This document shows positions 501 through 9,049 of a stretch of DNA of 9,049 bases, piece after piece. The notes beneath the pieces were generated by a model that had not been told where the DNA came from, made no database searches, and saw only the letters and a list, made by a program, of their open reading frames with translations. The translations under genes and the position numbers were made by a program. Source of the stretch: Bacteroidales bacterium (GTDB taxonomy: Bacteria > Bacteroidota > Bacteroidia > Bacteroidales > P3). Every line of letters begins with the position of its first letter. Within the stretch, counting starts at the first letter, position 1. Location of the stretch: contig JAFWOP010000154.1 in the NCBI GenBank assembly GCA_017545365.1, forward strand, positions 1 through 9,049, read 5' to 3'.

Positions 501-571
501 GAAACAAACTGTTTCCATGGGAGAAACAGTTTGTTTCTCCCATGGAAACTGTTAGTTTCCTCCGTTGAAAC
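501..571. repeat. 22-nt-period array of GTTTC-N7-GAAAC palindromes
   Basis: Three 17-nt units of the form GTTTC-N7-GAAAC start at 511, 533 and 555, an exact 22-nt period with 5-nt spacers. A half unit (GAAAC at 501-505) sits one period earlier. Units 1 and 2 are perfect reverse complements (17 of 17). The pairing extends to 501-559, where only 510/550 and 506/554 fail to match, so a single long hairpin with a 3-nt loop is also possible. It lies about 80 nt past the GH8 stop and has no U-run after it, so it is not a standard terminator, although it could protect the 3' end of the mRNA. Confidence 0.75.
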
Positions 572-600
572 TATGGGGAACTGACGTTCTTATGCTGTGA

Positions 601-649: not shown

Positions 650-2008
650 CTATTGAGGAACGATGACCTGATAGTTGCCGCTGAGGTGCATGAAAGCGAA
701 AAGCCGGAGCAGACCGTCGTAGTAGGCATCGAAGTAGCCGTCCTCAAAGGGCTCGTGCTTGGCATTCCAGAGGGCGTTGACAAACTCACGGCTCTTCTCG
801 TGCTTGCACATGACGGAGGCTGCGGCGAGGGTGCTGACGAGGCCGATGCTGTGGCGCAGCTTGCGGAAACCGCCGGCTCCCAGTATCTCGTTGCCCTCAG
901 GCAGGGTGCCGTCGGTGCGATACTGGTCGACAAAGGTGTCGATTCCCTGACTGTAGAAGAAGTTCTGAATCTTCTCGCCATACTGCTGCTGCCACTCGCC
1001 GTCGGCACAGCTCCACTCATAGTCAAGGGCAATGTTCATGGGCACGCGCCAGGAGTCGTAGCGGAAATTGTTGTTGCCGTTACGGCGGGGGGCACCCTGA
1101 GGCGCTTGTTGCATGCCTGGGAAGCGTGGCATCTGCATCTCGCTGCCGTCGAACTGGCATTGGTCGCCGTTGAGACCCGTCTTCTCGTTGATGCACTTGT
1201 GGAGGAACTCACGGCTCTTCTTGGCACAGTCGAGCCAGAAGTCGGAGCGTCCGTCATCGCCCCATTTTGCCCATACCTCGTAGAAGGCGGGGATATGGTA
1301 GGAAGGGTCGGTGAAGCGCTGGCCGAAGCCGTCGGGGGTGAAGGTAATGAGGCGTGTCTCTGGGTCGATGAGGTACATCTTCTGTGGCCCTGTCTGTTGT
1401 GGCCCGAATCCACCAAAGCCGGGACGGGGTTCAGGAGTGTACTCGCGAGGCTGTATGCAGTCGAGGATATGCTTGGCCTCTGCCTTGTAGTCGATGCCGG
1501 TATTGTTGCCCCATCGGTTGGAGGCAAAGATAAGGGCGGTGATGAAGTAAAGCTCGCCGTCGCTAGCTGCCCCTTCGGCATTGTGGGTGCCGTCGGTCTT
1601 GCAGCTCCAGGCGAAATATCCCTCACGCGAGCCGCTCTGGTGCTGCATGTACTTCTTGCTCCAGCGCCACAGACGGTCGAAGATGTCCTTCTCGTTCATC
1701 TGCACGGCAATCATCATGCCGTATGACATGCCCTCGGTGCGAGCATCATGGTTCTTGACGTCGGAGACGTAGCCGAGCGTGTCGCCAACCTCAAAGTAGA
1801 CCTTGTTGGGGCCACGGAACACAGCGTTGAACACTTCCTTTAGCTTGGCCTCAACCTCATCAGGCTGGTAGCCCATCTCTACAAACACATTGCGGTAGCG
1901 GCCTGTCTCTTGCGCTTCGCTAACGAATAATGAACAAATACACGTTACGCTAATTAGTAATATACGATGAATATCCATATTGCTCATTTTTAGTTTGTCA
2001 TTTCTCAT
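650..2008 (-). CDS. Glycoside hydrolase family 8, Rex-like exo-oligoxylanase
   Basis: A 452-residue enzyme, close to the family's usual size once the signal peptide is removed. The hydrophobic run ILLISVTCICSLFV (16-29) followed by SEAQ indicates Sec export, probably to the periplasm. The body matches, from memory, Bacillus halodurans Rex (EC 3.2.1.156), which removes xylose from the reducing end of xylo-oligosaccharides: YRNVFVEMGY, VGDTLGY, RTEGMSYGMMIAVQ (proton donor E92), GYFAWSC, ASDGELYF (D150, substrate positioning) and YDSWRVPMNIALD (D318, expected base). Two Gly/Pro/Gln-rich loops (about 192-209 and 291-314) are extra relative to Rex. Three in-frame ATGs are possible (2008, 1987, 1978) and all keep the signal peptide; I give the longest. 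It is the last gene of the PUL, 272 nt after SusD. Another GH8 specificity cannot be excluded. Confidence 0.9.
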   Translation of the reverse strand: MRNDKLKMSNMDIHRILLISVTCICSLFVSEAQETGRYRNVFVEMGYQPDEVEAKLKEVFNAVFRGPNKVYFEVGDTLGYVSDVKNHDARTEGMSYGMMIAVQMNEKDIFDRLWRWSKKYMQHQSGSREGYFAWSCKTDGTHNAEGAASDGELYFITALIFASNRWGNNTGIDYKAEAKHILDCIQPREYTPEPRPGFGGFGPQQTGPQKMYLIDPETRLITFTPDGFGQRFTDPSYHIPAFYEVWAKWGDDGRSDFWLDCAKKSREFLHKCINEKTGLNGDQCQFDGSEMQMPRFPGMQQAPQGAPRRNGNNNFRYDSWRVPMNIALDYEWSCADGEWQQQYGEKIQNFFYSQGIDTFVDQYRTDGTLPEGNEILGAGGFRKLRHSIGLVSTLAAASVMCKHEKSREFVNALWNAKHEPFEDGYFDAYYDGLLRLFAFMHLSGNYQVIVPQ

Positions 2009-2011
2009 TTT
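1984..2011. repeat. Degenerate heptamer tract over the GH8 start
   Basis: Four consecutive 7-nt units run TCATTTT, TAGTTTG, TCATTTC and TCATTTT, all in register. On the coding strand three of them carry ATGA, so the tract supplies ATGs at 2008, 2001 and 1987. The first and last are in the GH8 frame and the middle one is not. A change of one unit would shift which ATG is in frame. Confidence 0.55.
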
Positions 2012-2012
2012 T

Positions 2013-2048
2013 AGAAAAATCAGCCACCTATATTCACATACAGGTGGC
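2013..2048 (-). terminator. GNRA-loop hairpin with U-run in the GH8 leader
   Basis: On the minus strand GCCACCTGTAT (2048-2038) pairs with ATATAGGTGGC (2033-2023). This is an 11-bp stem with one G-U pair, closed by a GTGA tetraloop, and is followed by TGATTTTTCT. It has the shape of a rho-independent terminator, but it lies between SusD and GH8, only 4-45 nt before the possible GH8 starts, and no promoter can fit between them. It could therefore act as an attenuator, a partial terminator that lowers GH8 expression relative to SusC/SusD, or an mRNA-stabilising structure. The stem is certain; the role is inferred. Confidence 0.6.
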
Positions 2049-2156
2049 CATGAATCTTAGTGCTGTCATAACATGAGGAGTTATGATTGACTAAAAAAAC
2101 TACTAACCATATTTACTAATAACTAACTTATGAATAAAAACTACTATTTACGGCTG

Positions 2157-2164
2157 CAAAATTA
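2157..2164 (-). promoter_or_regulatory. Possible -7 promoter element upstream of GH8
   Basis: TAATTTTG on the minus strand fits the Bacteroidetes -7 consensus TAnnTTTG and sits in a very AT-rich stretch (about 2090-2200). I see no TTTG at the 19-21 nt spacing expected upstream, so the match is half a promoter. If real, it gives GH8 its own transcript with a leader of about 140 nt containing the hairpin at 2023-2048. Confidence 0.3.
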
Positions 2165-2234
2165 CTAGTATTTTTTATACATTATATAATCATACGTCCA
2201 AATGGTTTTTCTTTTTGTTTCAAAGGCGCATCGC

Positions 2235-2269
2235 TAATGAATAATGAATAATGAATAATGAATAAAGAA
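2235..2269. repeat. TAATGAA heptamer tandem array
   Basis: Four perfect TAATGAA units (2235-2262) are followed by TAAAGAA (2263-2269). The array begins 12 nt beyond the SusD stop in the 3' flank and does not encode protein on the minus strand. Confidence 0.85.
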
Positions 2270-2280
2270 AAATGAACTAA

Positions 2281-4050
2281 CTATTGCTTGGGCAAGTACC
2301 AGTTCTTTTGGTCCATGAGAAGTGTGTGCAGGACATTGTCCTGCTCTCCGTTGCGGCGGCTGATGGGGCCTGCGAGGTAGTCAGGGTCATTGCGACGCAG
2401 GGCCACTCGCATGAGGTCGTAGTAGCGGTAACCCTCGAAAAATCCCTCCAGGGCCATCTCTTCGATAATCATGTCCTCTACGAGGGGTATCTGGTATTGG
2501 ACGGTGTCCTCTCGCGTTGCTAACTGTTTTTCCGGCTGCGGCAGTACGTAGTAATCATTACAATGCGAGTCGCCGGAACCACGGGAGTGTATGCCTAGTA
2601 TTGCCAGATTTCCTTGTTCATCGAGACGAGGGAATGCCAATGGGTCGAACATGATGAGCTGTCCGGCCTTGCTACGCTCGATACTGTCCACGAAAAGCTC
2701 TACGTTCTCAGGGCAGAGACCATGCTTTAGGATGAGGAAGGCTGACTGTGGATAGCCTGATCGGTTGAGGGCCTCGGCAAAGCGAAGGTATACCATCGGG
2801 CTGCGATAGGTGGTGATGGAGCCCCTTGTGAACTTGTCGATTTGCTGTGTGAGGGAAGAGTACTCTTCGTAGGGGTCTTGTGTGCCACGTGATCTGAGGC
2901 TGTAGACGGAATAGAGACGGAGGTCTCCTGTGAGGATTTGCTCGCTTAAATCGTTTACGTAGATGACCTGTCTGGTTTGTTCGTTGGAGTACTCCAAGCA
3001 ATTAATCTGTCTGGCTGAGAGTTGCCGCATGGTGACAGTGGGCTGTAGCTGGTAGAAGTAATTGTTTTCGCGTGTGGAGTTCATGATGTTATCGATGTCA
3101 CTGATGTTTCCATCGAATATGTCTGTCTCCATGGGGATGATGCCCAGAACCTCGTTGTCGCCGGTAACGGAGTAGCTTCCTGAGGGTGAGGTGTAAATCA
3201 TCGGGGTGGACCAGTGCACGCGGTTGCTGGCACTGATCTTGATGGGGGCTATCTTGTCGTTCAGGTAATCGGAATACCATTTAGCGGCCTCTTCGTAGCG
3301 TCCTGCCCATAGGCATAGGTCGCCGAGGAGTGCGCGTGTGGGAATGAAAAATTTAGTGGAAGAACGTTTGCCGATGCTTCCATAGACGGGTGGATTGACG
3401 TATGCGTAGGGCGTGAGGTCCTCGATGAAATAGTTGCAGACGTCCTTGATGGATGAGAGCTGGGAGTTGAGTGCTGCGTGTGCTTCGCGCTCGGTCATGA
3501 GGGGCGTGGTGACGAGTGGCACCTCTCCATAGATTTTGACCAGCTCAAGATAGGTCCACGCACGGAAGCTCTTGACGGCGGCATACTCGTTGCGGAAGAG
3601 CTGACGTCCGCGGCGCTGCATGGTGGTGTCAATATGGGCGAGGAAGTAGTTGCAGTTGTTGATGACGGCGTAGTAGTCGGCTATCTTGTTGTACTTGTTT
3701 GAGTTGAGAGTTGAGGGTTGAGAGTTGAGAGTTGAGGGTTGAGAGTTGAGAGAGAAGGAAGCAAGGCGTTTGAGGTCTGAAGAGGCGGCATCGGTGACGG
3801 TCATGAGGTCGGAACGTGCCTCGCCAAGAATGACAGTACGGTCGGCAATAATCTGCATCTTGTTGATGATACCTAGTACGCTATACACTGAGTCTGTGGG
3901 ATGATTCAGCGTGTTGTCTTTCTCATATTCCACAAGCTCGGACTCGGTTTCAAGCATATCGCCACACGAAGTCATTCCAATAACCAATAAACAATAACCA
4001 ATAACCGTCATTGCATTGGTCATCTTCTTTATTATTGATAGCTTTTTCAT
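2281..4050 (-). CDS. SusD/RagB family glycan-binding lipoprotein
   Basis: A 589-residue outer-membrane lipoprotein of the SusD/RagB family, which caps the SusC transporter and binds glycan at the cell surface. The lipobox VIGMTSC puts the acylated cysteine at residue 29. Family landmarks are LGEARSDL near residue 80, NKYNKIADYYAVINNCNYFL (118 onward, the conserved early SusD helix), FRAWTYLELVKIYGEVPLV, and the C-terminal IIEEMALEGFFEGYRYYDLMR (about 528-548), ending KNWYLPKQ. An in-frame TTG at 4059 would add three residues. I prefer the ATG at 4050 because the FAS1 protein's similar signal peptide starts at the same point. Residues 100-117 are a translated heptamer repeat (LNSQPST twice) not expected in the family. 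It follows SusC by 104 nt, so co-transcription is likely. Confidence 0.93.
   Translation of the reverse strand: MKKLSIIKKMTNAMTVIGYCLLVIGMTSCGDMLETESELVEYEKDNTLNHPTDSVYSVLGIINKMQIIADRTVILGEARSDLMTVTDAASSDLKRLASFSLNSQPSTLNSQPSTLNSNKYNKIADYYAVINNCNYFLAHIDTTMQRRGRQLFRNEYAAVKSFRAWTYLELVKIYGEVPLVTTPLMTEREAHAALNSQLSSIKDVCNYFIEDLTPYAYVNPPVYGSIGKRSSTKFFIPTRALLGDLCLWAGRYEEAAKWYSDYLNDKIAPIKISASNRVHWSTPMIYTSPSGSYSVTGDNEVLGIIPMETDIFDGNISDIDNIMNSTRENNYFYQLQPTVTMRQLSARQINCLEYSNEQTRQVIYVNDLSEQILTGDLRLYSVYSLRSRGTQDPYEEYSSLTQQIDKFTRGSITTYRSPMVYLRFAEALNRSGYPQSAFLILKHGLCPENVELFVDSIERSKAGQLIMFDPLAFPRLDEQGNLAILGIHSRGSGDSHCNDYYVLPQPEKQLATREDTVQYQIPLVEDMIIEEMALEGFFEGYRYYDLMRVALRRNDPDYLAGPISRRNGEQDNVLHTLLMDQKNWYLPKQ
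3703..3751. repeat. GTTGAGR heptamer array inside the SusD gene
   Basis: Seven consecutive 7-nt units, GTTGAGA or GTTGAGG in the order A,G,A,A,G,A,A, give a 21-nt super-period. Because 21 is a multiple of three the reading frame survives, and the minus strand encodes a seven-residue repeat (LNSQPST). It sits between the RLASF and NKYN landmarks of SusD, where a surface loop is likely. Confidence 0.9.
3971..4050 (-). repeat. Shared lipoprotein signal-peptide block, copy A (SusD)
   Basis: This 80-nt block from the SusD ATG to just before the lipobox cysteine aligns without gaps to 8942-9021 in the FAS1 gene. I count 70 of 80 identical bases, including 38 in a row (3971-4008). Its core is four heptamers (CCAATAA, once ACAATAA) at 3977-4004, which encode the hydrophobic VIGYCLLVIG. 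Confidence 0.85.
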
Positions 4051-4060
4051 TGTTTTCAAT

Positions 4061-4153
4061 GTTTATTGTTTAACGTTGACGGTTGGTACTCACCACCGTC
4101 TTGTTTATTGTTTAACGTTGACGGTTGGTACTCACCACCGTCTTGTTTATTGT
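4061..4153. repeat. Two perfect 42-bp tandem repeats between SusC and SusD
   Basis: Identical 42-nt units occupy 4061-4102 and 4103-4144, and 9 nt of a third follow (4145-4153), ending one base before the SusC stop codon. On the coding strand each unit folds: GACGGT pairs with ACCGTC and GGT with ACC around a GAGT loop, with one bulged A. No U-run follows, so a terminator is unlikely. The SusC-SusD mRNA would carry two identical hairpins here, possibly tuning processing or the SusC:SusD ratio (inference). 42 nt equals six heptamers, and the first four begin with GTT. Confidence 0.9.
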
Positions 4154-4154
4154 A

Positions 4155-7100
4155 TTAGAGGTTGATGTTCACACCGAATGAGAATGTACGTCCTGAGCCG
4201 AGGAGTCCCCGATCGATGCCTTGTGAGAGGATGTTGGAGGAGAAGGCACAGTTAGGGTCGCTGCCTAGGTAGTGCGTAATGGTGAAGAGGTTCTGTGCGC
4301 TGCCCCAAATGGTGACGCCTTGCAGATAGGTGCTCTGTATGGGCACGTGGTAGCTGAGGGTGACGTTGCTGAGGCGGAGGTAGGAACCGTCCTCTATCCA
4401 GCGGTCGCTGAAGCGTGAGTTACCCATGGGGTCGGTGTAGGAGACGCGGGGGATGTCGGTCACCTGGCCTTCTGTTGTCCAACGGTTCTGGATGGCTGTG
4501 GTCTGGTTGATGAAGTAGGTGCCGCCTTCAAGGAGTGAGCGCTGGTAGTTGAAGATGTCGTTGCCAAGTGAATAGGTGAAGGTGGCATCGAGGCGCAGGT
4601 TCTTGTAGGCGAGTGAGGTGAAGATGTTACCGTAGATGTCGGGGTTGGGGTCGCCGATGATAGTACGGTCGGCCTCGTCGATGAGACCGTTCTCTCCGGC
4701 GGGCGAACCGCTGGACGCGCTGAGGTCGAGGAAGCGCATGTCGCCAGCCTGGAAATACACACGGTCGCCGTTTTGCTTGAGAAGGTAGTGTCCGTCGGCC
4801 TCAGCCGCAGTGGTGGTGGCGTAGACACCATCGGTCTTGTAACCGTAGAACATGCCTACGGGCTGCCCCACCTGTGTGAGGATGGTGGCACCAAAGATGT
4901 TGGTCTCAATGGAGCGGTCATTGTCGGGCAGGGCCGTCACCTTGTTCTTATAGTGTCCGGCAGATGCTCCGAGTTCCCAGGAGAAGTCCTTCAGGGCGAG
5001 TACCTTTGTCGAAAGGGTTGCGTCGAAGCCCACGTTCTCCAGCTTACCATCGTTGCTCCAGTTCTCCTGAAGTCCACTGGTGTATGACAACTGGCGAAGA
5101 GAGAGGAGATTGGTTGTCCAGCTCTTGAACACATTCAGGTGTAAGTTCACGCGGTTGTTGAGGAAGTTGCCGGTCAGTCCAGCCGTGAGTCGGCGTGTTG
5201 TCTCCCACTGCAGGTCGGTATTACCGATATTGCCAATCAGCTTTCCCGTGACACCTGTGTCCGTAATCATTCGCTTCGAGATGAAGTATGAGCGAGAGGC
5301 AGTATAGTTGATGTCATCGTTGCCAGAGACATCGAAGCCCACGTTCAGCCGCAAGTAGTCGATGCCCTTGATACCGGAGAGGAATTTCTCGTTGGTGAGC
5401 ACCCAGGAAGCCTCGACGCTCGGGAAGAGTCCCCAAACGGTGCCGAAGAGTTTGAGACCACTGGCATCGTCGCCGAAACGTGACGAAGCCTGTGCCGAGA
5501 GACCGGCACTGACGTAGAAGCGGTCACCAAAACCATAGTCACCCAGGACATACCAGGTAATCTCACGTGTCTGGTCATCGGCACCATCTGTGGACTTGAA
5601 CTGCAACGAGTTCGACATGTTCGGGTTCTTGTCGTTTGAGGAGTTGTATCCTAACTGTGACGTGCTGGTGAAGTCGTAACTCAGATAGCGCACACCAGCC
5701 TTGACGCTGATGTCATGGAGGTCATATTTGTTCTGCCACGTGAGCCGCGTATCGCTCTGGATGGCCGTCTCGCGGGCAGCCATGCTCTGTGCGATGTTTT
5801 TCAGTTTCGTCTCTTCCGAAATACCATCGACCACGAAGTTAGGCACACCCTGAAGAGGCAGGTAGTAGTTTTCGTTGGTATTGACCAGGCCGAGCACGAA
5901 ATGCTCGCTCAAGTTGAGATGACGGTTGAACCGATATTTCGGTGTGATGGCAAAGGTGATAAGGCGGTTACCAAAAGAGTTGCGGTTTCTTCCATCACCA
6001 TATTGCAAGATGGAGGTGGGGTTGGCAAGACGTCCGCGTCCCTGGAATTTCCCCTCAAGATAGTCATCGGCCTCAGCGAGATAATGGCTGATAGTACCGT
6101 GGTTGTCGAATGCGTAAGGTGAGAGGAAGGGCGACTTGGCCAATGCAAGGAATCCGGGCGAGGTGATGACAGTGCCGAGTGGATTCAGCGGTGCGCCGTC
6201 ATCGCGCAGGTCACGGTCCACATCACTGTAGTAAGCATCGAAGCGGGCATCAAGTCTGTTGGTGATGGAGATGTCGGAGTTGAGACGAAGGTTGAAACGC
6301 GAGTAGTCGTTCTCCTTCAGTGTGCTGTTGCCTAACGAGTAACCAACAGAGAGGTTATAAGAGGCGACGTCGTCACCACCCTGCACGTTGATGCCGTAGT
6401 TTTGTGAGAAAGCATTCTTGTAGACCTCATCCTTCCAGTCGGTATTGTTGTGATACTGATTGTAATAGTAATAGGAAGGTTCGCTGTTGAGGTAACGCAT
6501 ATTGCTCATTGCCGTGGGGTTTATATGGCCTGACAGCAACTCCGTCGTGTAAAGCCTGTATTCCTCGGCTCCCAGCATCTCCGGCATACGGGGGATTAGC
6601 TCGTACCGTCCATTGATGTTGACGTCAATCTTCGTGGCCATCGACTTGTTGCGCTTCGTCTTGATGACGAGCACCCCGTTGGCACCCTTGGCTCCGTAGA
6701 GGGCGGTTCCGTTCTTCAGCACTTCTACGCTCTCGATATCATTGACATTGAGGTTCATCAGCAGGTTGTTGTAGTATCCATCGTGAAGCATGGAGCGCTG
6801 GTACTGCATATCCATGACAACATCGTCAAGGACGACAAGCGGCTGCGCATTGGCATTGAGCGAGTTGATACCTTCAATGAGCATGGTGTTGCCCATGCCT
6901 GGTATGCCTCCACGTTTCACCATACGCATATCGGCTCCCAACTGCTGGGCTACGAGCGGGTCGATACTCACCTCGGCATTGTTGTCAAAGCGGTTAGCCT
7001 CTGCGCTGATGAATGCCGAAGTGGTACGTCCGTAAGTCTCCCTGAAGGCATTGCTGTACAGGCTGGCATCGGCTTTCTCGCCATGAATGGCTCGCTGCTG

Positions 7101-7358
7101 CAGGTTATAGCCATCAACACGAAGCAGCAAGGAGCGGGTGCTGCTGTTCACCTTCAGTTCGTACTGGCCATTCTCATCGGTCATGGTCGTCATACGCTGG
7201 TTGTCGTAGGCAGAAACGATGACACCTGCCAGAGGCTTGCCTGTGGCCGCGTCGGTCACGGTACCGCTCACTGTCTTCTTATCCTCCTGTGCTGTCGCTG
7301 CAATCGAAACGCAGGCCAAGCATATCGCACAGATTGTCTTATGTATGTTGCTAATCAT
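4155..7358 (-). CDS. SusC/RagA-type TonB-dependent outer-membrane transporter
   Basis: A 1067-residue transporter that imports SusD-bound oligosaccharide across the outer membrane with TonB energy. A Sec signal peptide (1-23, ending ATA before Q24) leads into a carboxypeptidase-regulatory-like beta-sandwich (about 30-105: VSGTVTDAATGKPLAGVIVSA, TDENGQYEL). The plug follows, with NTMLIEGINSLNANAQPLVV (157-176) and the signature DIESVEVLKNGTALYGAKGA continuing to IKTK (207-235). The rest is beta-barrel, closing with TFSFGVNINL, an aromatic-rich strand typical of the family. I see no clear TonB box or the usual EVVVTGYG segment between the N-terminal domain and the plug. An upstream in-frame TTG at 7367 exists; I chose the ATG at 7358. 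The gap after the FAS1 stop is 19 nt and is filled by a repeat, indicating one operon with coupled translation. Confidence 0.95.
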   Translation of the reverse strand: MISNIHKTICAICLACVSIAATAQEDKKTVSGTVTDAATGKPLAGVIVSAYDNQRMTTMTDENGQYELKVNSSTRSLLLRVDGYNLQQRAIHGEKADASLYSNAFRETYGRTTSAFISAEANRFDNNAEVSIDPLVAQQLGADMRMVKRGGIPGMGNTMLIEGINSLNANAQPLVVLDDVVMDMQYQRSMLHDGYYNNLLMNLNVNDIESVEVLKNGTALYGAKGANGVLVIKTKRNKSMATKIDVNINGRYELIPRMPEMLGAEEYRLYTTELLSGHINPTAMSNMRYLNSEPSYYYYNQYHNNTDWKDEVYKNAFSQNYGINVQGGDDVASYNLSVGYSLGNSTLKENDYSRFNLRLNSDISITNRLDARFDAYYSDVDRDLRDDGAPLNPLGTVITSPGFLALAKSPFLSPYAFDNHGTISHYLAEADDYLEGKFQGRGRLANPTSILQYGDGRNRNSFGNRLITFAITPKYRFNRHLNLSEHFVLGLVNTNENYYLPLQGVPNFVVDGISEETKLKNIAQSMAARETAIQSDTRLTWQNKYDLHDISVKAGVRYLSYDFTSTSQLGYNSSNDKNPNMSNSLQFKSTDGADDQTREITWYVLGDYGFGDRFYVSAGLSAQASSRFGDDASGLKLFGTVWGLFPSVEASWVLTNEKFLSGIKGIDYLRLNVGFDVSGNDDINYTASRSYFISKRMITDTGVTGKLIGNIGNTDLQWETTRRLTAGLTGNFLNNRVNLHLNVFKSWTTNLLSLRQLSYTSGLQENWSNDGKLENVGFDATLSTKVLALKDFSWELGASAGHYKNKVTALPDNDRSIETNIFGATILTQVGQPVGMFYGYKTDGVYATTTAAEADGHYLLKQNGDRVYFQAGDMRFLDLSASSGSPAGENGLIDEADRTIIGDPNPDIYGNIFTSLAYKNLRLDATFTYSLGNDIFNYQRSLLEGGTYFINQTTAIQNRWTTEGQVTDIPRVSYTDPMGNSRFSDRWIEDGSYLRLSNVTLSYHVPIQSTYLQGVTIWGSAQNLFTITHYLGSDPNCAFSSNILSQGIDRGLLGSGRTFSFGVNINL

Positions 7359-7363
7359 AATTC

Positions 7364-7391
7364 TCAATCTTCAATTTTCAATCTTCAATTC
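7364..7391. repeat. TCAATYT heptamer array at the FAS1-SusC junction
   Basis: Four units, TCAATCT, TCAATTT, TCAATCT and TCAATTC, alternate at 7-nt spacing. The array makes up nearly the whole 19-nt gap and also supplies the last codons of the FAS1 gene (I-E-D) and its TGA stop. The SusC ATG is 6 nt beyond its end. Confidence 0.85.
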
Positions 7392-9021
7392 GTCTTGGGC
7401 GCAGGTAGATGCAGTCAAGCAACATCTCATTAGAGAATTTTGCCCTCTCTGAAGTAGATATGCTGCACTTGATGGTCAGGCTGATTTTGCTAGTACTTTG
7501 GTTGTAGTTTGTGGCGGGGAATGAGAAAGCTTCGGCCAGCATAACGGTATCAACCTTTTCCGGATTGCTTTGGAACACCGTGCCACCGCAATCGAAAGTG
7601 TTCTCTTGGCCATCAGCCTCCACATAGTTAATGGATGCCTTGAACTTACAGGGGCGAATCTTTTTGGGATCAGGATTGCCGAATACCGCCTGTGGCAAGA
7701 TGATGGCACAAACGTCGTACTTACACGACAACACATTGTCTAAACGGATGGTAATCTCCCAGTTCGAACGTCCCGTGGGAATAATCTGAAGGAAACCATT
7801 CTGGGAAACACTGTCGGCAATGAGCCTAATTCCTGAATAGACGCAATCCTTCTCGTCAGTGACATACCATGAAGACTCTGTCTCAGTCCATAGTTCTTTG
7901 AAGAAAGTCTGTTCGGGGGTAAAGGGCCACTCTTTGGTCTTGTATAGAATACCATTGCTACATTGCAGCGGTGTCGCACCATAAAGGATGCCACCAGGAG
8001 CGAATGGTTTTTGGAATACATGGTATATAGGTCTGCCTGCAACATAACTCCTACGCCAGCTCAGGTAAGGGACTGATACCAAGGAGTCGTTTGTTGACTT
8101 CTGGTCGGTCATGTTGAAGACAGCGTCGTCGAGCAGTGCCCGGTTAGTCCAGTATCGCTGCAAAGAGTCGGCCTTCATGTAGGACTTGTCAAAGACGAAA
8201 TACTTCGACGTGTTCTCCCAGGCTTTCTGCCAACCTTCATTGGTAGGAACCACCACCCAGTAGGTGGAGTCTTCGGCATTGAGCAGTCCGATGTTGTCCA
8301 GAATGTGGTTATGCTCGTGGACCACAGAGTCGATGTAGACGGGAACGCCCTCGATGATACCACTCGACACGGAAGCATCGGGGTCGAACTCATCCCATTC
8401 AAACTGACGCAGGTTGCTGCCGATGGCCGACAAGTCAGGCTGGTCACACAGAGCCTCATAGAGATTAAAATCGTATGGAATCGCGTGGGATATCACATGT
8501 ATCACACCATTCTTTGCCCGCTGGTTGGCAGTAATGACCGGAATGTCCTGAATGGTCGATTTCGTCACGCTCACGGTCTTTCCATTCATCAGACGCAATG
8601 TCTGTGAACCCTCCTTCATGGACGTGGTCATGCGTGAGAGATGATTGAATACAAACGACTTCTCAACCATGGAGTCGCCGCGAGCCGTCTCAACAAGCCG
8701 CAGAAGGGAGTCCTTGTTGAACGTGCCGTTAATGGGGGCAATCACGGTAAACGCCTGACTGCCGTCAAGCAGTTGGGCAAAACTGACCTCTGTCTTGCGG
8801 TGCATACGGAATTTGCGGGTCTGCTCAAGCACCTGACAGAAATCCGACAGTTGGGGGTTGGCCTTCAACTGCTGCCACAAGGTGGCATCGCCGCCATTCT
8901 CCAATGCCGGCTCGTAGTGGTCGGTCCAGTCAGAGCAGGCTGTCATTCCAATAACCAATAAACAATAACCAATAACCGTTATTCCATTGGTTACTCTCTT
9001 TATAATTGATGGTCTTTTCAT
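7378..9021 (-). CDS. FAS1 (fasciclin) domain surface lipoprotein of the PUL
   Basis: A 547-residue lipoprotein with its lipobox (VIGMTAC) cysteine at residue 29. Residues about 45-183 form a FAS1 fold: FTVIAPINGTF (91-101) corresponds to the family's first conserved box, FVFNHL (123-128) to the middle helix, and NGVIHVISHAIPY (171-183) to the second box. A weaker second FAS1 copy begins near 186, with YWVVVPTNEGW (254-264) and SNGILYKTKEW near its end. The C-terminal part looks beta-rich and I do not recognise it. FAS1 domains mediate adhesion or carbohydrate contact, so a surface glycan-binding partner of SusC/SusD is plausible but inferred. It precedes SusC, which is often the first gene of such operons, so transcription probably starts beyond the right edge. 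An ATG at 9039 would add MKNEKR; I chose 9021 because the matching SusD signal starts there. Confidence 0.88.
   Translation of the reverse strand: MKRPSIIKRVTNGITVIGYCLLVIGMTACSDWTDHYEPALENGGDATLWQQLKANPQLSDFCQVLEQTRKFRMHRKTEVSFAQLLDGSQAFTVIAPINGTFNKDSLLRLVETARGDSMVEKSFVFNHLSRMTTSMKEGSQTLRLMNGKTVSVTKSTIQDIPVITANQRAKNGVIHVISHAIPYDFNLYEALCDQPDLSAIGSNLRQFEWDEFDPDASVSSGIIEGVPVYIDSVVHEHNHILDNIGLLNAEDSTYWVVVPTNEGWQKAWENTSKYFVFDKSYMKADSLQRYWTNRALLDDAVFNMTDQKSTNDSLVSVPYLSWRRSYVAGRPIYHVFQKPFAPGGILYGATPLQCSNGILYKTKEWPFTPEQTFFKELWTETESSWYVTDEKDCVYSGIRLIADSVSQNGFLQIIPTGRSNWEITIRLDNVLSCKYDVCAIILPQAVFGNPDPKKIRPCKFKASINYVEADGQENTFDCGGTVFQSNPEKVDTVMLAEAFSFPATNYNQSTSKISLTIKCSISTSERAKFSNEMLLDCIYLRPRRIED
8942..9021 (-). 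repeat. Shared lipoprotein signal-peptide block, copy B (FAS1)
   Basis: This is the partner of 3971-4050, gap-free with 70 of 80 bases identical and a perfect 38-nt match at 8942-8979. The CCAATAA-type heptamers are at 8948-8975. The encoded signals differ at seven positions before the cysteine (for example MKRPSIIKRVTN here against MKKLSIIKKMTN in SusD) and share TVIGYCLLVIGMT exactly. The proteins show no similarity beyond the cysteine. Confidence 0.85.
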
Positions 9022-9028
9022 TCTTTTT

Positions 9029-9049
9029 TCATTTTTCATTTTTCACTTT
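9029..9049. repeat. TCATTTT heptamer array at the FAS1 start, cut by the edge
   Basis: Units TCATTTT, TCATTTT and TCACTTT run in register to the last base of the window. On the coding strand each of the first two carries ATGA, giving ATGs at 9039 (in the FAS1 frame) and 9032 (out of frame). It resembles the tract at the GH8 start. Confidence 0.65.

What the first reader, a model, noticed from the sequence alone, without database searches (positions are those of the whole stretch)
1984..9049. Heptamer grammar: unrelated 7-nt tandem arrays at nearly every gene boundary
Tracts at 1984-2011 (TCATTTT), 2235-2269 (TAATGAA), 3703-3751 (GTTGAGR), 3977-4004 and 8948-8975 (CCAATAA), 7364-7391 (TCAATYT) and 9029-9049 (TCATTTT) all have a 7-nt period, although their sequences differ. 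The 4061-4153 tandem unit is 42 nt, or six heptamers. The tracts sit at starts, stops or gaps, and none lies inside a catalytic or barrel region. A shared unit length with different sequences suggests one process, such as slippage of fixed step or a templated mechanism, rather than descent from one repeat. Heptameric repeats are known in cyanobacteria (STRR). I recall similar phrases in Prevotella genomes but know of no unified explanation.
Basis: partly seen in the sequence, partly recalled or inferred. Interest (0 to 1): 0.75.

Follow-up and report, generated by a model that had tools for sequence, protein, structure and literature searches.

The report
Seven-base repeats invading Prevotella genes
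A group of gut Prevotella bacteria carries many short tracts in which a seven-letter DNA word is repeated; they lie beside genes and also inside genes for ordinary enzymes, where they can add the same seven-amino-acid motif in any reading frame and differ between near-identical proteins.

Summary
Six window arrays score >=12 at period 7 (none in 100 simulations). Period 7 is the commonest basic period in 711 kb of the same genome (123 of 343 arrays) and in 80 congener loci (151 of 434), but 19 other genera of the order gave 1 such array in 289 kb.

"At gene boundaries" is half right. Boundary enrichment is real (52 of 123 within 50 nt of a start or stop; random 11.7%), yet 73 of 123 lie inside ORFs. 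In the window, 3701-3752 is inside SusD, and two arrays form signal-peptide cores. All 16 array-bearing ORFs I chose for testing are known families (QueA, LpdA-type, RsmF, Mfd, AcrB and others).

Because 7 = 1 modulo 3, a stop-free heptamer array encodes one heptapeptide in every frame. Near-identical proteins differ by exactly 7 or 14 residues at such sites (SusD, QueA), and orthologues carry different heptamers at one site.

Best explanation: 7-nt slippage plus copying between loci, filtered by selection into leaders, signal peptides and permissive loops. Copying is indirect; the enzyme is unknown. Heptamer repeats are known; in-frame invasion on this scale appeared in none of my literature searches.

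The parts
1984..2011 (-). Degenerate heptamer tract (AAAATGA-like in the sense of the gene) at the 5' end of the GH8 gene; overlaps codons 1-9 if the upstream ATG at 2008 is used, otherwise leader
   Evidence: scores 12 only at period 21 (1979-2014), below 10 at period 7
2235..2276 (.). TAATGAA array, 6 copies, just beyond the SusD stop codon (2281-2283)
3701..3752 (-). GAGTTGA array (sense CTCAACT), 7.4 copies, inside the SusD ORF; encodes SLNSQPSTLNSQPSTLNS. Absent from 29 other sampled orthologues; one near-identical protein is shorter by exactly 7 residues
3977..4006 (-). CCAATAA array (sense TTATTGG) encoding the hydrophobic core VIGYCLLVIG of the SusD lipoprotein signal peptide
4060..4153 (.). 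42-nt tandem repeat in the SusC-SusD gap: GTTTATT-like stretch plus hairpins at 4078-4100 and 4120-4142
7359..7391 (-). Heptamer/14-mer array (sense GATTGAA and variants) directly before the SusC ATG (7358-7356); it contains the TGA stop of the upstream fasciclin gene
8948..8977 (-). CCAATAA array, same 30 nt as 3977-4006, in the signal-peptide codons of the fasciclin-domain lipoprotein
9021..9049 (-). TTCATTT array at the 5' end of the fasciclin lipoprotein gene; runs to the window edge
2281..4050 (-). SusD-like gene (host of two arrays)
   Evidence: PF14322
4155..7358 (-). SusC-like TonB-dependent receptor gene
   Evidence: PF07715, PF13715
7378..9039 (-). Fasciclin-domain lipoprotein gene
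   Evidence: PF02469
650..2008 (-). GH8 gene
   Evidence: PF01270

Best explanation
The arrays are products of a lineage-specific, still active mutational process in these Prevotella. (1) Copies are gained and lost in 7-nt steps, most simply by replication slippage. (2) Pieces of arrays are copied from one locus to others, probably by microhomology-guided template switching or gene conversion, so each lineage has a small repertoire of related heptamers and a site can swap its heptamer. (3) Selection decides where they stay: purine/A-rich leaders and spacers, signal-peptide cores that need mainly hydrophobicity, and permissive loops of enzymes. A stop-free heptamer array reads as the same heptapeptide in all three frames (7 = 1 mod 3), so it can enter a gene in any frame; afterwards, steps of three heptamers (21 nt, 7 residues) keep the frame. 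Shown: the excess, its lineage restriction in the samples, in-frame copies in real genes, different units at the same sites, 7-residue steps between near-identical proteins, a shared repertoire within a genome. Inferred: slippage as the physical step and ectopic copying as the route. Unknown: the enzymes and why 7.
For: Excess at 7; no period-7 array in a Markov-5 simulation of 311 kb. Lineage restriction. In-frame copies in known gene families: 16 of 16 tested. Step size: P0002 vs P0001 SusD minus 7 residues at 99.1% identity; QueA plus 7 (98.2%), plus 14 (99.1%), plus 7 (96.7%). Swapping at a site: SusC signal peptide, RsmF loops, SusD leaders (7 of 30) and signal peptides (6 of 30) with differing units, interior 3 of 452 windows. 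Dispersal: within-genome unit sharing exceeds all 500 locus shuffles. Translation through arrays: TGA to TCA in 8 of 17 single-base variants when the stop-containing strand of the AATGGTC family is sense, 1 of 49 when antisense, 0 of 10 outside ORFs.
Against: No copying event was seen directly and no donor-recipient pair was traced. Within-genome sharing could partly reflect common mutation bias or shared ancestry. Period 8 (and 9, 22) repeats are also frequent, so 7 is the peak, not the only step. Three QueA proteins differ by 5 residues at the array site, not 7. Density varies widely between congeners (0 to 16 period-7 arrays per locus; 25-105 per Mb in five genomes). Same-length replacement at many sites fits gene conversion but could also be slow substitution.
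Confidence: 0.6

Rival explanations
1. In-place slippage only. Each array grew at its own site from a chance seed because the replication machinery slips most readily by about 7 nt; units look alike within a genome through mutation bias and because only some sequences are tolerated.
For: Published hypothesis: heptanucleotides are the commonest long simple repeats in most genomes studied and 7 nt may match the stretch held by the polymerase (Mrazek et al. 2007, seen only as cited in passages of PMC4679880, and PMC4692102). Steps of 7 residues. Some array-free orthologues carry array-like sequence at the site (FSQPNKYN in SusD; LNIEDGKLKI in QueA).
Against: Within-genome unit sharing above all 500 locus shuffles; AATGGTC is 22 of 123 own arrays and 1 of 151 in congener loci; inverted partners above control (28 vs 5 of 156; 26 vs 0 of 188); a general polymerase property does not explain scarcity in 19 other genera of the order.
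Confidence: 0.2
2. A palindromic mobile element (like Rickettsia palindromic elements or MITEs) whose arms are heptamer arrays; single arrays are remnants that lost one arm.
For: Inverted partners above control; 32 arm-core-arm rows; conserved cores in different genes (4 places in this genome with <=3 mismatches, control 0; identical 27-nt core twice in one Fkp gene).
Against: Most arrays have no inverted partner at the 13/14 level (128 of 156 own, 162 of 188 congener). Cores have few copies and different sequences. None of the 32 rows is in the window. Y1 transposase loci (3) have no period-7 array in their flanks.
Confidence: 0.1
3. A templated enzyme, such as a telomerase-like reverse transcriptase with a 7-nt template, writes the repeats.
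For: Fixed step with variable sequence; reverse transcriptase genes are present (4 matches at 3 loci).
Against: Two of the three proteins look like group II intron enzymes by sequence (my reading); PADLOC gives generic RT hits, no telomerase-like call. No period-7 arrays lie in the fetched RT flanks (about 0.66 arrays per 3 kb would be expected, so weak). Many different units per genome (33 among 123) would need many templates.
Confidence: 0.04
4. The arrays are regulatory: copy number in leaders tunes or switches expression (phase variation), and the coding ones are by-products.
For: Leader arrays are purine-rich in sense (67 of 93) and sit next to start codons, the kind of unstructured A-rich leader that favours initiation in this phylum (PMC6847099, abstract and passages).
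Against: About half of arrays lie inside ORFs, many in enzymes; leader arrays are not conserved between species (23 of 30 SusD orthologues have none).
Confidence: 0.05

Closest known systems
Heptanucleotide long simple sequence repeats (Mrazek et al. 2007, as cited in PMC4679880 and PMC4692102)
   Same: 7-nt unit dominates; scattered phylogeny; length variable; slippage invoked
   Different: Many related units per genome, about half inside ORFs in frame, unit swapping at orthologous sites, steps of 7 residues in housekeeping proteins
TAACTGA direct repeats of Beggiatoaceae, also in some Cyanobacteria and five Bacteroidetes (PMC4679880, passages)
   Same: Heptamer arrays, often just before start codons; one strand translatable as a heptapeptide
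   Different: There one heptamer dominates and single-base relatives are rarely repeated; here a family of related units, many inside genes
GGGAATC-type heptamer repeats of Xanthomonas and Nostoc (PMC4692102, passages)
   Same: Abundant variable heptamer arrays near genes; length and sequence vary between close relatives
   Different: Those are G-rich and quadruplex-forming; these are mostly A/T-rich
Rickettsia palindromic elements (described in PMC10969869, passages)
   Same: In-frame insertion into many unrelated genes whose products tolerate it
   Different: RPEs are about 150-bp palindromes encoding a conserved peptide; here tandem heptamers with variable unit, only a minority palindromic
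Cyanobacterial STRR heptamers
   Same: Heptanucleotide tandem repeats
   Different: Sequences differ; not compared here

Membership tests
Heptanucleotide long simple sequence repeats | Excess of 7-nt tandem arrays over chance | tested here: met
Heptanucleotide long simple sequence repeats | Copy-number variation in unit steps between close relatives | tested here: met
   7 and 14 residue (21, 42 nt) differences in near-identical SusD and QueA proteins; DNA of those relatives not seen
Heptanucleotide long simple sequence repeats | Units not a multiple of three are mainly outside coding regions (expectation stated in PMC4679880) | tested here: not met
   73 of 123 own and 75 of 151 congener arrays inside ORFs; arrays are still under-represented there relative to the 88-90% coding share
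Rickettsia palindromic elements (type of system) | In-frame insertion into many unrelated genes | tested here: met
Rickettsia palindromic elements (type of system) | Palindromic element with conserved sequence | tested here: not met
   28 of 156 own and 26 of 188 congener arrays have an inverted partner; cores few and diverse
Phase-variable simple sequence repeats | Copy number switches expression | not testable with these tools
   no expression data
REP/MITE elements moved by Y1 or other transposases | Association with a transposase gene | tested here: not met
   3 Y1_Tnp loci, no period-7 array in 1.8-3.3 kb around them; other transposases not tested
Cyanobacterial STRR | The specific STRR heptamers | not tested
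   sequences not compared

The most novel reading that the evidence does not exclude
These Prevotella carry an active, lineage-specific system or mutator that writes and disperses 7-nt repeats into genes. Because a heptamer array is frame-neutral, it works as a general engine for inserting heptapeptide loops and replacing signal-peptide cores across the proteome, enzymes included, fast enough to differ between near-identical strains.
Probability: 0.25. Interest if true: 0.9.

Novelty: new variant of a known kind. Interest (0 to 1): 0.72.

Why it matters
If a mutational step of 7 nt continually places frame-neutral peptides into loops and signal peptides, it is a natural experiment in protein insertion tolerance on a genome scale and a source of strain diversity in abundant gut bacteria. 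It makes the old question of why 7-mers dominate bacterial long repeats testable, because array-rich and array-poor genera lie in one order, so candidate polymerase or repair genes can be compared. Practically, the arrays can disturb gene calling, protein alignment and strain typing, and they offer multi-locus strain markers.

Tried and rejected
GH8 neighbourhoods were not syntenic with the window's SusC/SusD, so they served only as a congener sample. 'Every unit is stop-free on exactly one strand' was tested: so per array (110 of 123 own; shuffles at most 88) but not per distinct unit (23 of 33; shuffle mean 20.1), so it reflects a few dominant families. Templated or transposase origin: no arrays in the fetched RT or Y1 flanks, weak evidence. 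Rfam (three congener loci) gave 26 matches, all below their gathering scores, 25 of them microRNA hairpins and one a threonine leader. The joint DNA alignment of palindrome cores was unreliable because arms with different heptamers misled it; no covariance model was built. The RsmF model (mean pLDDT 46) was discarded. The built-in reversed-pattern controls do not help because those units are mirror-symmetric.

Limits. Own sample 1 (starts of 20 contigs chosen by number): 33 arrays in 311 kb, 106/Mb. Own sample 2: 90 in 400 kb, 225/Mb; 15 of its 16 contigs were known to hold TTATTGG hits, so the pooled 173/Mb is probably high. Sample 1 alone gives the same picture: 17 of 33 inside ORFs, 13 of 33 near a boundary, random 12.1%. 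The 80 congener loci were chosen by GH8 homology. ORFs come from a simple longest-ORF script; some are surely wrong. Counts with periods 7, 14 and 21 together include ordinary coiled-coil repeats of 21 nt (for example L043:8789, L185:11927, L191:2967); period 7 alone is. The 16 ORFs sent to Pfam were picked by me. Near-identical proteins come from a database clustered at 90% identity and their strains are unnamed. In the RsmF set a seventh sequence, L113, came out truncated and was dropped. In one search both arms of one pair can each be counted.
Full report
WHAT WAS CHECKED. The nearest named GH8 records are Prevotella and Xylanibacter, many from rumen. Genes, all on the minus strand, are fasciclin lipoprotein, SusC, SusD and GH8. 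Six arrays score >=12 at period 7; at periods 4-24 only 7, 14 and 21 reach 12; no period-7 array appeared in 100 simulations. TRF agrees and, at its lower threshold, also lists a few repeats of period 9, 11, 22 and 42. Corrections: the 1984 tract is degenerate; the 42-nt unit is a heptamer-like part plus a hairpin; three tracts lie in codons (SusD interior; SusD and fasciclin signal peptides).

GENOME AND LINEAGE. In 711 kb of the same genome 123 of 343 arrays have basic period 7; in 80 congener loci 151 of 434. A Markov-5 simulation of the first 311 kb gave none. TRF gives 120 of 319 (own), 48 of 218 (five other congeners pooled), 114 of 348 (80 loci) and 2 of 32 (order sample). In the five other congener genomes period 7 ranks first (G072, G097) or second (G117, G127 after 22; G034 after 8), at 25-105 per Mb. 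Nineteen genomes of other genera of the order (18 from other families, one from the same family), 289 kb, hold one period-7 array. CTCAACTCTCAACTC occurs 141 times in own and in 3 of 98 other genomes of the order. So the phenomenon is concentrated in this genus, with large differences between species.

WHERE THE ARRAYS SIT. Period 7 only: own, 52 of 123 lie within 50 nt of an ORF start or stop against 11.7% of random positions; congener loci 59 of 151 against 11.6%; five genomes 33 of 57 against 11.5%. Inside ORFs >=100 aa: 73 of 123, 75 of 151 and 20 of 57, against 88-90% of random positions. So arrays are enriched at boundaries and under-represented, but common, inside genes. Boundary enrichment is shared by period 8 (77% of 74) and weaker for periods 9-18 (30% of 120); period 22 shows none (11.3% of 53). 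With periods 7, 14 and 21, I read 96 arrays in 63 own ORFs (period 7 alone 76 in 52). Sixteen array-bearing ORFs (11 own, 5 congener, chosen by me) all match a Pfam family above its cut-off: oxidoreductase of the LpdA type, FGGY kinase, RimO/MiaB-type radical SAM enzyme, PLP decarboxylase, Mfd/TRCF, AcrB type, rhamnosidase, QueA, CbiB, ATP-grasp, CobQ, MurF-Alr fusion, Fkp (two), YfhO and RsmF. Gene names are my reading of the domains.

WHY SEVEN IS SPECIAL FOR CODING DNA. Since 7 leaves remainder 1 on division by 3, an array whose circular unit has no stop codon is open in all three frames and encodes the same heptapeptide in each (TTATTGG gives LLVIGYW; CTCAACT gives the STLNSQL cycle). In all samples, period 7: inside genes the sense unit is stop-free for 102 of 126 arrays and in signal-peptide codons for 27 of 30; upstream of starts for 21 of 93 and downstream of stops for 19 of 98 (one array can count in two groups). 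The interior figure is partly forced by calling ORFs; the low figure downstream of stops is not obviously so. When the stop-containing strand of the AATGGTC family is sense, 8 of 17 single-base variants are TGA to TCA, against 1 of 49 when antisense and 0 of 10 outside ORFs. This is evidence that arrays are translated.

EVOLUTION AT FIXED SITES. Of 30 SusD genes (own plus 29 orthologues, 56-70% identical) none of the other 29 has the internal array. Leaders carry an array in 7 of 30 and signal peptides in 6 of 30, with differing units, against 3 of 452 interior windows, two of them the window's own array. In six RsmF orthologues (73-81% identical to L084) different heptamers sit in the same loops and L093 has none; L084, L093 and L102 are isolates by their titles, so metagenome assembly is not the cause. 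Own against the closest sampled genome (16 kb, 81.7% identity): of 14 array sites, one array is the same in both, four are arrays with different units, nine are in own only; the SusC signal peptide has CAATGGT in own and CAATCTT in the other, same length and phase. Over all samples 117 of 171 internal coding sites have a sampled homologue; array residues are gapped in every homologue at 23 and in most homologues at 37; at the other 80 they are mostly aligned, because the homologue has an array too or has other residues of equal length.

NEAR-IDENTICAL PROTEINS. P0002, 99.1% identical over aligned residues to the SusD representative P0001, lacks exactly one heptapeptide. QueA proteins compared with P0241: plus 14 residues at 99.1%, plus 7 at 98.2%, plus 7 at 96.7%, no change at 98.6%, and minus 5 with the array gone at 98.2-98.6% (three proteins). 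At a second QueA site, proteins 88-99% identical read VQCSMLNVQCS, LHSSIFNLQSSI, TQHPTPSTQ or IDHSPLTIDHS (their DNA was not seen). The LpdA-type site reads NYQLSIVNSQL in four proteins about 99% identical, NFQILNLQSSIFNLQS in two at 92-93%, and has no array in one at 90%.

DISPERSAL. Sharing of units between different loci of one genome is 0.0555 against 0.0331 when loci are shuffled among six genomes, 0 of 500 shuffles as high; between genomes 0.0162. Inverted partners (13 of 14 bases within 120 nt) exist for 28 of 156 own arrays (control 5) and 26 of 188 congener arrays (control 0), a few with conserved cores. I read this as copying between loci in both orientations, with some small palindromic elements, not as one element family.

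STRUCTURE. The AF2 model of SusD (mean pLDDT 71.9) puts the array (about residues 100-117) in low-confidence coil between helices 87-97 and 123-147. In phmmer's alignment this QueA has 56 residues where B. subtilis QueA has 11, and an array lies in that stretch.

MECHANISM AND PRIOR ART. Shown: 7-nt unit, 7-residue steps, recurrence at sites, lineage restriction, signs of translation. Inferred: slippage and template switching. Unknown: the enzyme. Heptamer dominance and a polymerase-footprint explanation are published (Mrazek et al. 2007, seen only as cited in passages of PMC4679880 and PMC4692102). In-frame invasion of many genes has a precedent in Rickettsia palindromic elements (passages of PMC10969869). 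The searches listed no paper on heptamer arrays inside Prevotella genes, judged from titles and abstract starts; the library lacks most subscription papers.

Noticed in passing
window 4078-4100 and 4120-4142; L041:5307-5329; L044:762-784; L231:17152-17174: A 23-nt hairpin family (GACGRTTGGTACTCACCAYCGTC and variants) dispersed in this genome and one congener; 7 probe rows (two loci are the window itself seen twice), reversed-probe control 1.
   Followed up: partly
window 523-572 and period-22 arrays in the samples: A 22-nt repeat class, palindromic in the window copy; 0 of 53 lie within 50 nt of an ORF start against 7.1% of random positions.
   Followed up: no
window 3977-4059 and 8948-9039: SusD and the unrelated fasciclin lipoprotein share a near-identical 30-residue signal-peptide region, suggesting copying of signal peptides between genes.
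   Followed up: no
L139, L140, L143, L147 (SusD 5' regions); L221 (RimO loop): A GC-rich palindrome (CCCCTCCC...GGGAGGGG type) occupies the same leader, signal-peptide and loop positions that heptamer arrays occupy in other species.
   Followed up: no
L068:15383-18154: One Fkp-type gene holds two in-frame copies of a heptamer-armed palindrome with an identical 27-nt core.
   Followed up: partly
L197:19171-19280; L199:14717-14840; L182:1465-1570: Leader array and signal-peptide array of one gene are inverted copies, so the mRNA could pair across the start codon.
   Followed up: no
own sample, period-9 arrays (for example L034:3692-3768): A second repeat class with period 9, several units resembling TTCGTGTAA (30 of 343 own arrays).
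   Followed up: no
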